A stretch of DNA of 64,000 nucleotides from Pelagibacterium halotolerans B2 (lineage in GTDB: Bacteria; Pseudomonadota; Alphaproteobacteria; Rhizobiales; Devosiaceae). Made by a program: the position numbers and the translations under genes. The stretch lies in contig NC_016078.1 in the NCBI RefSeq assembly GCF_000230555.1, forward strand, positions 1,612,001-1,676,000, in the 5' to 3' direction. Within the stretch, counting starts at the first letter, position 1; each line of letters opens with the position of its first letter. The notes under the pieces were generated by a model. It did no database searches and was not told the DNA's origin. It saw only the letters and a program-made list of their open reading frames with translations. This document shows, piece by piece, positions 52,914-53,285 of this stretch.

Positions 52914-53285
52914 TTATTTCGGCCGCTTGGCGCCGTACTTCGACCGGCGCTGCTTGCGATCCTTCACCGACTGGGTGTCCAGAACGCCGCGCAGCACGTG
53001 ATAGCGCACGCCCGGAAGGTCGCGCACACGGCCGCCGCGGATCAGCACGACGGAGTGCTCCTGGAGGTTGTGCCCCTCGCCGGGAATATAGGTAATAACT
53101 TCACGCTGATTGACCAGGCGCACCTTGGCCACACGACGCAAAGCCGAGTTCGGCTTCTTTGGGGTCGTCGTATAGACACGCGTGCAAACACCGCGCTTCT
53201 GCGGGTTGGCCTCCATCGCCGGAACCTTGTTCCGCTTCGGCTTGGCCTGCCGGGGCTTGCGGATCAGCTGATTAATGGTCGGCAT
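52914..53285 (-). CDS. rpsL: 30S ribosomal protein S12 with Arg88
   Basis: Decoding-centre protein, 123 residues, start MPTINQLIRKPRQAKPKRNK. The loop TPKKPNSALR keeps Lys43, but the second streptomycin loop reads GGRVRDLPGVRY with Arg88 (codon CGC at plus 53022-53024) where E. coli has Lys88. Asp89, target of RimO, is kept. The length and alignment register equal those of E. coli S12. First gene of the str operon. Confidence 0.98.
   Translation of the reverse strand: MPTINQLIRKPRQAKPKRNKVPAMEANPQKRGVCTRVYTTTPKKPNSALRRVAKVRLVNQREVITYIPGEGHNLQEHSVVLIRGGRVRDLPGVRYHVLRGVLDTQSVKDRKQRRSKYGAKRPK

What the first reader, a model, noticed from the sequence alone, without database searches (positions are those of the whole stretch)
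53022..53024. S12 carries Arg at the classical streptomycin-resistance position 88
Seen: the loop reads GGRVRDLPGVRY and residue 88 is Arg (CGC), in exact register with E. coli S12 where it is Lys. Known: K88R in S12 is a classical streptomycin-resistance change in several bacteria. Lys43 is unchanged. A change from a Lys codon to CGC needs at least two base changes, so inference is that it is fixed in the lineage and not a recent mutant. It may give natural streptomycin insensitivity and alter the context of the RimO target Asp89; rimO is present at 24405.
Basis: partly seen in the sequence, partly recalled or inferred. Interest (0 to 1): 0.75.

Follow-up and report, generated by a model that had tools for sequence, protein, structure and literature searches.

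The report
Family-wide Arg88 in ribosomal protein S12
A ribosomal protein of this bacterium carries the amino acid that makes laboratory mutants of other bacteria resist streptomycin; here it is the normal form of a whole bacterial family, the same form is already described in another group, and whether it gives this bacterium resistance is unproven.

Summary
In detail: S12 (window 52914-53285, minus strand) has Arg, CGC, at residue 88, with Lys43 and Asp89 unchanged. It is no recent mutation. All 110 family genomes in which S12 was found (121 searched, 16 genera) carry Arg88, against 0 of 82 genomes read from other families of the order. The only other carriers read are sphingomonads, where the residue and natural streptomycin resistance are already in print (PMC4741004). 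The neighbouring genes keep the two groups apart, so Arg88 probably arose twice. I saw no paper on one feature, and aimed no search at it: Arg88 always comes with Arg61 (59 of 59 distinct Arg88 sequences, 0 of 166 Lys88 sequences), perhaps a co-adapted pair. The resistance claim stays open: published Devosia phenotypes are mixed, and the source strain and its 16S rRNA could not be examined. RimO is present and Asp89 is kept, so nothing shows that this modification is altered. Overall: a new member of a known kind, with one testable side finding.

The parts
52914..53285 (-). rpsL, ribosomal protein S12 (uS12), 123 aa
   Evidence: ORF; TIGR00981 213 bits, cut-off 113; only PF00164 match in the held genome
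53022..53024 (-). codon 88, CGC, Arg (Lys in Lys88 relatives)
53103..53105 (-). codon 61, CGT, Arg (mostly Phe or Tyr in Lys88 relatives); accompanies Arg88 in every Arg88 locus read
53157..53159 (-). codon 43, AAG, Lys, the other classical streptomycin position, unchanged
53019..53021 (-). codon 89, GAC, Asp, the RimO target residue, unchanged
52428..52898 (-). rpsG, ribosomal protein S7, used for the neighbour tree
   Evidence: ORF; tblastn to the other loci
50325..52415 (-). fusA, elongation factor G, used for the neighbour tree
   Evidence: ORF; tblastn to the other loci
24405..25757 (+). rimO, S12 methylthiotransferase (the mechanical ORF begins at 24288 with TTG; the ATG at 24405 is the likelier start), one CxxxCxxC motif
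   Evidence: TIGR01125 557 bits, cut-off 357; ORF; motif

Best explanation
Arg88 is the fixed, by parsimony ancestral, form of S12 in this family (unnamed f1; that of Devosia and Pelagibacterium, judging by the named relatives of a neighbouring protein). It was probably gained on the family's stem together with Arg61, and gained separately in sphingomonads. Inferred mechanism: Arg at 88 shifts the S12 loop that packs against the 530 loop of 16S rRNA (and helix 27, recalled), weakening streptomycin's hold or its stabilising of the error-prone 30S state, while Lys43 and Asp89 keep decoding normal. Arg61 probably belongs to the same adaptation. Shown here: the residue, its fixation, its distribution and the 61/88 coupling. 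Inferred: the effect on streptomycin and any role of Arg61.
For: Family census: 110 of 110 genomes with an S12 match, out of 121 searched. Other families of the order: 0 of 82 genomes read. Nearest family in the tree, f21 (SH-aLRT 87), is Lys88/Phe61 with codons AAG and TTT in 3 of 3 loci. The S7+EF-G tree needs 2 changes for residue 88 and 2 for Arg61 and rejects one Arg88 clade (p-AU 0.017). Coupling: 59 of 59 distinct Arg88 S12 sequences have Arg61, 0 of 166 Lys88 sequences do. Function in others, passages only: PMC4741004, PMC11165598, PMC6472365, PMC4182516.
Against: Devosia phenotypes are mixed, so Arg88 may give little resistance in this family. Only two independent origins support the coupling, so chance or a local gene conversion is possible; 5 of 120 protein-database hits would be exceptions if real. 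The S12 tree itself unites the two groups. No distance between residues 61 and 88 was measured. The 16S rRNA could not be found. The clade test used a quick tree, a simple model and a group named after the tree was seen. The sphingomonad passages do not say which residue the sensitive rpsL1 allele changes, and report that its effect varied between species.
Confidence: 0.6

Rival explanations
1. Arg88 is a neutral or structural variant in this family: with Arg61 and the rest of the family's ribosome, streptomycin sensitivity is normal, and any tolerance depends on uptake or on an enzyme.
For: Devosia nitraria and D. pacifica reported sensitive, D. mutans intermediate. An APH(6)-like ORF exists elsewhere in the genome, and a chromosomal strB sets background resistance in Agrobacterium fabrum (PMC10521367, passages).
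Against: K87R alone raises the MIC from 2 to >1,024 ug/ml in K. pneumoniae, and sphingomonads with the same residue are described as naturally resistant. The APH(6)-like ORF is far below the NCBIfam cut-off (131 against 325 bits).
Confidence: 0.3
2. The rpsL gene, or its middle part (about codons 20-105), was transferred between a sphingomonad and the family's ancestor, carrying Arg61 and Arg88 together.
For: The S12 tree unites the Arg88 rows (SH-aLRT 93), while the S7+EF-G tree keeps them apart. The middle part is nearly identical in the two groups.
Against: The S12 grouping is no longer one clade when columns 61 and 88 are left out. At columns 8, 11, 18, 19 and 113 most family rows match the other alphaproteobacterial rows and most sphingomonads do not, and Ser106 is found only in the family among the rows compared. 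Third-position identity in the middle is 0.545 with sphingomonads and 0.501 with sisters, sphingomonads with sisters 0.589: no clear excess, though saturation and base composition leave that test little power.
Confidence: 0.15
3. A recent resistance mutation of the sequenced strain or a sequencing error.
For: The position is a classical one (passages of PMC4182516).
Against: 11 of 11 same-genus genomes and 99 of 99 other family genomes with a match carry it, with CGC or CGT codons only.
Confidence: 0.01

Closest known systems
Natural Arg87/88 S12 of Sphingomonadaceae and Erythrobacteraceae (PMC4741004, passages)
   Same: Same residue 88, same GGRVRDLPGVRYH loop, Arg61 in every Arg88 sphingomonad locus read, Lys43 kept
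   Different: Different order. N-terminus, residue 106 and residue 113 mostly differ, and the neighbour genes do not group. The passages seen do not mention this family or Arg61
Laboratory or clinical rpsL K88R (K87R) streptomycin-resistant mutants (PMC4182516, passages; other species as cited in PMC10521367, passages)
   Same: Same amino-acid change at the same position
   Different: In K. pneumoniae a single A-to-G mutation with a fitness cost (0.94); here the codon is CGC/CGT, fixed family-wide, and accompanied by Arg61
Streptomycin control in Agrobacterium fabrum by rpsL, rsmG and strB (PMC10521367, passages)
   Same: A related group; this genome also has rsmG and an APH(6)-like ORF
   Different: The named Rhizobiaceae S12 read here (Hoeflea olei L006, Neorhizobium L008) is Lys88; the APH(6)-like ORF is below the NCBIfam cut-off

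Membership tests
Bacterial ribosomal protein S12 (rpsL, TIGR00981) | score over the curated cut-off, full length | tested here: met
   213 bits against 113, residues 1-123
Natural sphingomonad-type Arg88 rpsL | Arg at 88 fixed in the lineage | tested here: met
   110 of 110 family genomes with an S12 match; 121 searched
Natural sphingomonad-type Arg88 rpsL | Lys43 unchanged, Arg61 present | tested here: met
   110 of 110 genomes; the one other row, a second copy in G312, has Lys43 but Phe61 and Lys88
Natural sphingomonad-type Arg88 rpsL | resistant phenotype of the lineage | tested here: inconclusive
   literature passages only: D. geojensis resistant, D. nitraria and D. pacifica sensitive, D. 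mutans intermediate; source strain not tested
Natural sphingomonad-type Arg88 rpsL | a sensitive rpsL allele makes the strain sensitive | not testable with these tools
   bench test; reported for sphingomonads with rpsL1, to a degree that varied between species
Acquired rpsL K88R mutant | one-base change from AAR, absent from close relatives | tested here: not met
   codon CGC or CGT in 110 of 110 family genomes
RimO substrate S12 | Asp89 and a rimO gene in the genome | tested here: met
   Asp89 in 110 of 110 family genomes; RimO TIGR01125 557 bits in the window
RimO substrate S12 | methylthio group on Asp89 | not testable with these tools
   needs mass spectrometry

The most novel reading that the evidence does not exclude
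Arg61 and Arg88 of S12 are a co-adapted pair that evolved twice in Alphaproteobacteria. Arg61 makes a normally costly streptomycin-resistance residue compatible with fast, accurate translation, so whole families can live with a built-in resistant ribosome.
Probability: 0.35. Interest if true: 0.5.

Novelty: new member of a known kind. Interest (0 to 1): 0.27.

Why it matters
If Arg88 S12 is the fixed norm of a whole family, reading it as an acquired resistance mutation in genome surveys would be wrong, and streptomycin counter-selection with a sensitive rpsL allele might work in Devosia and Pelagibacterium as it does in sphingomonads. The Arg61/Arg88 coupling, if functional, is a natural case of how a ribosomal resistance residue can be carried without lasting cost. 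The mixed Devosia phenotypes warn against predicting resistance from the residue alone.

Tried and rejected
Recent mutant or error: rejected by the census. Whole-gene transfer from sphingomonads: weakened by the column and column-dropping tests, not excluded for the middle part. The protein database as a source of further Arg88 lineages (120 of 8000 scored hits listed): by eye, many of the odd rows printed look like joins of one organism's N-terminus to a sphingomonad C-terminal half, mostly on short contigs, so I left all 120 rows out of the coupling count. Of those 120, 81 of 83 Arg88 rows have Arg61, 2 do not, and 3 Lys88 rows have Arg61; these would be exceptions if real. No join was tested formally.

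16S rRNA streptomycin sites: no 16S found in the held genome by Rfam (the control rang in 9 of 14 genomes) or by a primer sequence, so the rRNA is unread. AadA_C search: nothing rang in any control genome, so uninformative. Plasmid records: 68 records with a match, 30 listed, 19 of those over 2 million bases; only the two sphingomonad ones were read. No distance between residues 61 and 88 could be measured with these tools. Tree rows were hand-picked: 97 of the 274 loci then held, 2 of them (L126, L190) dropped for lack of a neighbour gene.

Papers: 10 of 10 searches used; 14 papers seen as passages, none read whole. None of the 8 titles listed for Pelagibacterium with streptomycin is about its phenotype; I saw passages of one, of no use. 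Passages of PMC4494151 and PMC4940378 gave no Devosia phenotype. PMC7432010 and PMC11837543 only use the sphingomonad rpsL marker. No search was aimed at a 61/88 coupling.

Full report
The observation. The window carries the str operon on the minus strand: rpsL 52914-53285, rpsG 52428-52898 and fusA 50325-52415, with rpoC at 54961-59163 upstream. Codon 88 of rpsL is CGC, Arg, at 53022-53024; codon 43 is AAG (Lys), codon 89 GAC (Asp), codon 61 CGT (Arg). The register is exact against the best PDB chain, which I recognise as E. coli. The base-change argument is understated: AAA and AAG each differ from CGC at three positions, though the amino-acid change alone needs one.

Where the genome belongs. 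The held genome has 3,948,887 bases in 2 contigs. The gene next to rpsL, an esterase-like phytase-family protein, has as its first named hits a Pelagibacterium mangrovi protein (69% identity) and a Devosia geojensis protein (59%). The genus is therefore probably Pelagibacterium and the family that of Devosia.

Distribution. In the genus, 11 of 13 genomes had an S12 match and all 11 have Arg88. In the family, 110 of 121 genomes, drawn evenly from a larger group, had a match. I read S12 from all 110, in 16 genera. Each has one with Asn27, Lys43, Arg61, Arg88, Asp89 and Ser106; codon 88 is CGC in 88 and CGT in 22. The 113 rows are these 110, two duplicates (L171, L172) and a second copy in G312 (L123, contig C75). 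That second copy is Lys88/Phe61/Cys27 and is probably a contaminant contig (contamination 4%).

Outside the family, 0 of 82 genomes read from the same order have Arg88; the order search had a match in 183 of 199 genomes, and some of the 82 come. In the class, 11 of 12 genomes read of one family (f64, which groups with named sphingomonads) have Arg88 and 0 of 27 from other families do; in the phylum beyond the class 0 of 10. Of 80 named genome records kept from a larger, capped list, the 7 Sphingomonadales have Arg88 and the other 73 do not (three of the 73 appear under a wrong key because their titles look like handles). Two named sphingomonad plasmid records also carry Arg88. These are not random samples: loci given are best matches, and searches used the window's own S12 as query, which favours Arg88 rows.

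Arg61 goes with Arg88. Across 335 loci and 225 distinct S12 sequences, 59 of 59 Arg88 sequences have Arg61 and 0 of 166 Lys88 sequences do. The nearest family in the neighbour tree, f21, is Lys88/Phe61 in 3 of 3 loci, with AAG and TTT codons, and one f64 genome, G915 (L261), is Lys88/Phe61/Cys27. Asn27, by contrast, comes and goes (9 changes on the neighbour tree). Among 120 protein-database hits, 2 of 83 Arg88 rows lack Arg61 and 3 Lys88 rows have it. Many odd rows there look like joined halves of different organisms (by eye), so I counted none of the 120.

One origin or two. A tree of S7 plus the N-terminal part of EF-G (95 hand-picked rows) puts the family deep in its order, beside f21 (SH-aLRT 87), and the sphingomonads apart; residue 88 needs two changes and Arg61 two. 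Holding all Arg88 rows together is rejected (p-AU 0.017; quick tree, simple model, two rows left out, group named after seeing the tree). The S12 tree unites the Arg88 rows (SH-aLRT 93). That falls to 89 without column 88, and the group is no longer one clade without columns 61 and 88. At columns 8, 11, 18, 19 and 113 most family rows agree with the other alphaproteobacterial rows against sphingomonads, and Ser106 is the family's own among the rows compared. Two parallel gains are the simplest reading; transfer of the middle of the gene is not excluded.

What it does. Known, from passages read: K87R in K. pneumoniae raises the streptomycin MIC from 2 to >1,024 ug/ml with relative fitness 0.94 (PMC4182516). 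Sphingopyxis TFA and Kp5.2 are described as naturally resistant, and Arg87 was proposed as the reason and as a feature of two families (PMC4741004). An engineered rpsL1 allele confers streptomycin sensitivity on sphingomonads, to a degree that varies between species; the passages do not say which residue it changes (PMC11165598; PMC6472365). In E. coli the modified Asp sits in a pocket with 16S nucleotides 522-528, and neighbouring residues are resistance or dependence sites (PMC3347575). Loss of the RsmG methyl group at G527, next to this pocket, gives low-level resistance (PMC7550191).

Against a simple prediction: Devosia nitraria is described as sensitive to 10 ug/ml streptomycin, and its table scores D. 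pacifica negative and D. geojensis positive for resistance (PMC5644702). Devosia mutans 17-2-E-8 shows intermediate sensitivity (PMC4838601). The S12 of D. nitraria, D. pacifica and D. mutans was not read by name. So Arg88 is compatible with resistance in this family but does not by itself predict it.

Other determinants. The genome has rsmG over its cut-off, an APH(6)-like ORF elsewhere in the chromosome that passes the Pfam cut-off but lies far below the NCBIfam cut-off for APH(6) (131 against 325 bits), and a full rimO in the window. The 16S rRNA could not be found in the held copy, so rRNA-borne resistance is unknown.

RimO. Asp89 is kept in 110 of 110 family genomes and RimO scores 557 bits against a cut-off of 357. 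Whether Asp89 is modified beside Arg88 is a bench question; nothing found suggests a change.

Verdict. A true observation with an ordinary core: a lineage-fixed natural variant, already described in another order and here extended to a whole family. The part worth following is the strict Arg61/Arg88 pairing and the mismatch between the residue and reported Devosia phenotypes.

Noticed in passing
G000:C1:396514-397245 (L276 1432-2355), outside the window: A chromosomal APH(6)/hydroxyurea-kinase-family ORF in the same genome; over the Pfam cut-off, far below the NCBIfam APH(6) cut-off, and its presumed catalytic loop looks unlike the kinase motif I recall.
   Followed up: partly
L257, L258, L259 (order family f40, genus g43): S12 with changes in stretches that are constant in most rows (PQKRGVC reads PQKQGSC, NLQEHS reads NLQEFS), in three single-contig genomes of one genus.
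   Followed up: no
L226, L255, L256 (order family f21): The family nearest to the window's reads YIPGVGHN where most others read YIPGEGHN.
   Followed up: no
G157, G184, G206 (order family f41, genus g89): S12 matches are much weaker than in the rest of the order (E about 3e-56); the sequences were not read.
   Followed up: no
L123 (G312 contig C75): A second, Lys88-type rpsL in a genome whose other copy (L279) is Arg88; probably contamination.
   Followed up: partly
protein hits printed: Many S12 proteins on short contigs look like assembly joins of one organism's N-terminus to a sphingomonad C-terminal half; judged by eye.
   Followed up: partly
window 50379-53336 plus strand: A 985-codon open frame lies antisense to fusA, rpsG and rpsL; most likely a shadow of the coding strand's codon usage.
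   Followed up: no
L025 (Brevundimonas diminuta): S12 carries one extra residue near position 60, in the same turn as residue 61.
   Followed up: no
held genome G000: No 16S rRNA was found by Rfam model or primer pattern in a genome rated 100% complete, which suggests the rRNA is withheld or masked.
   Followed up: partly
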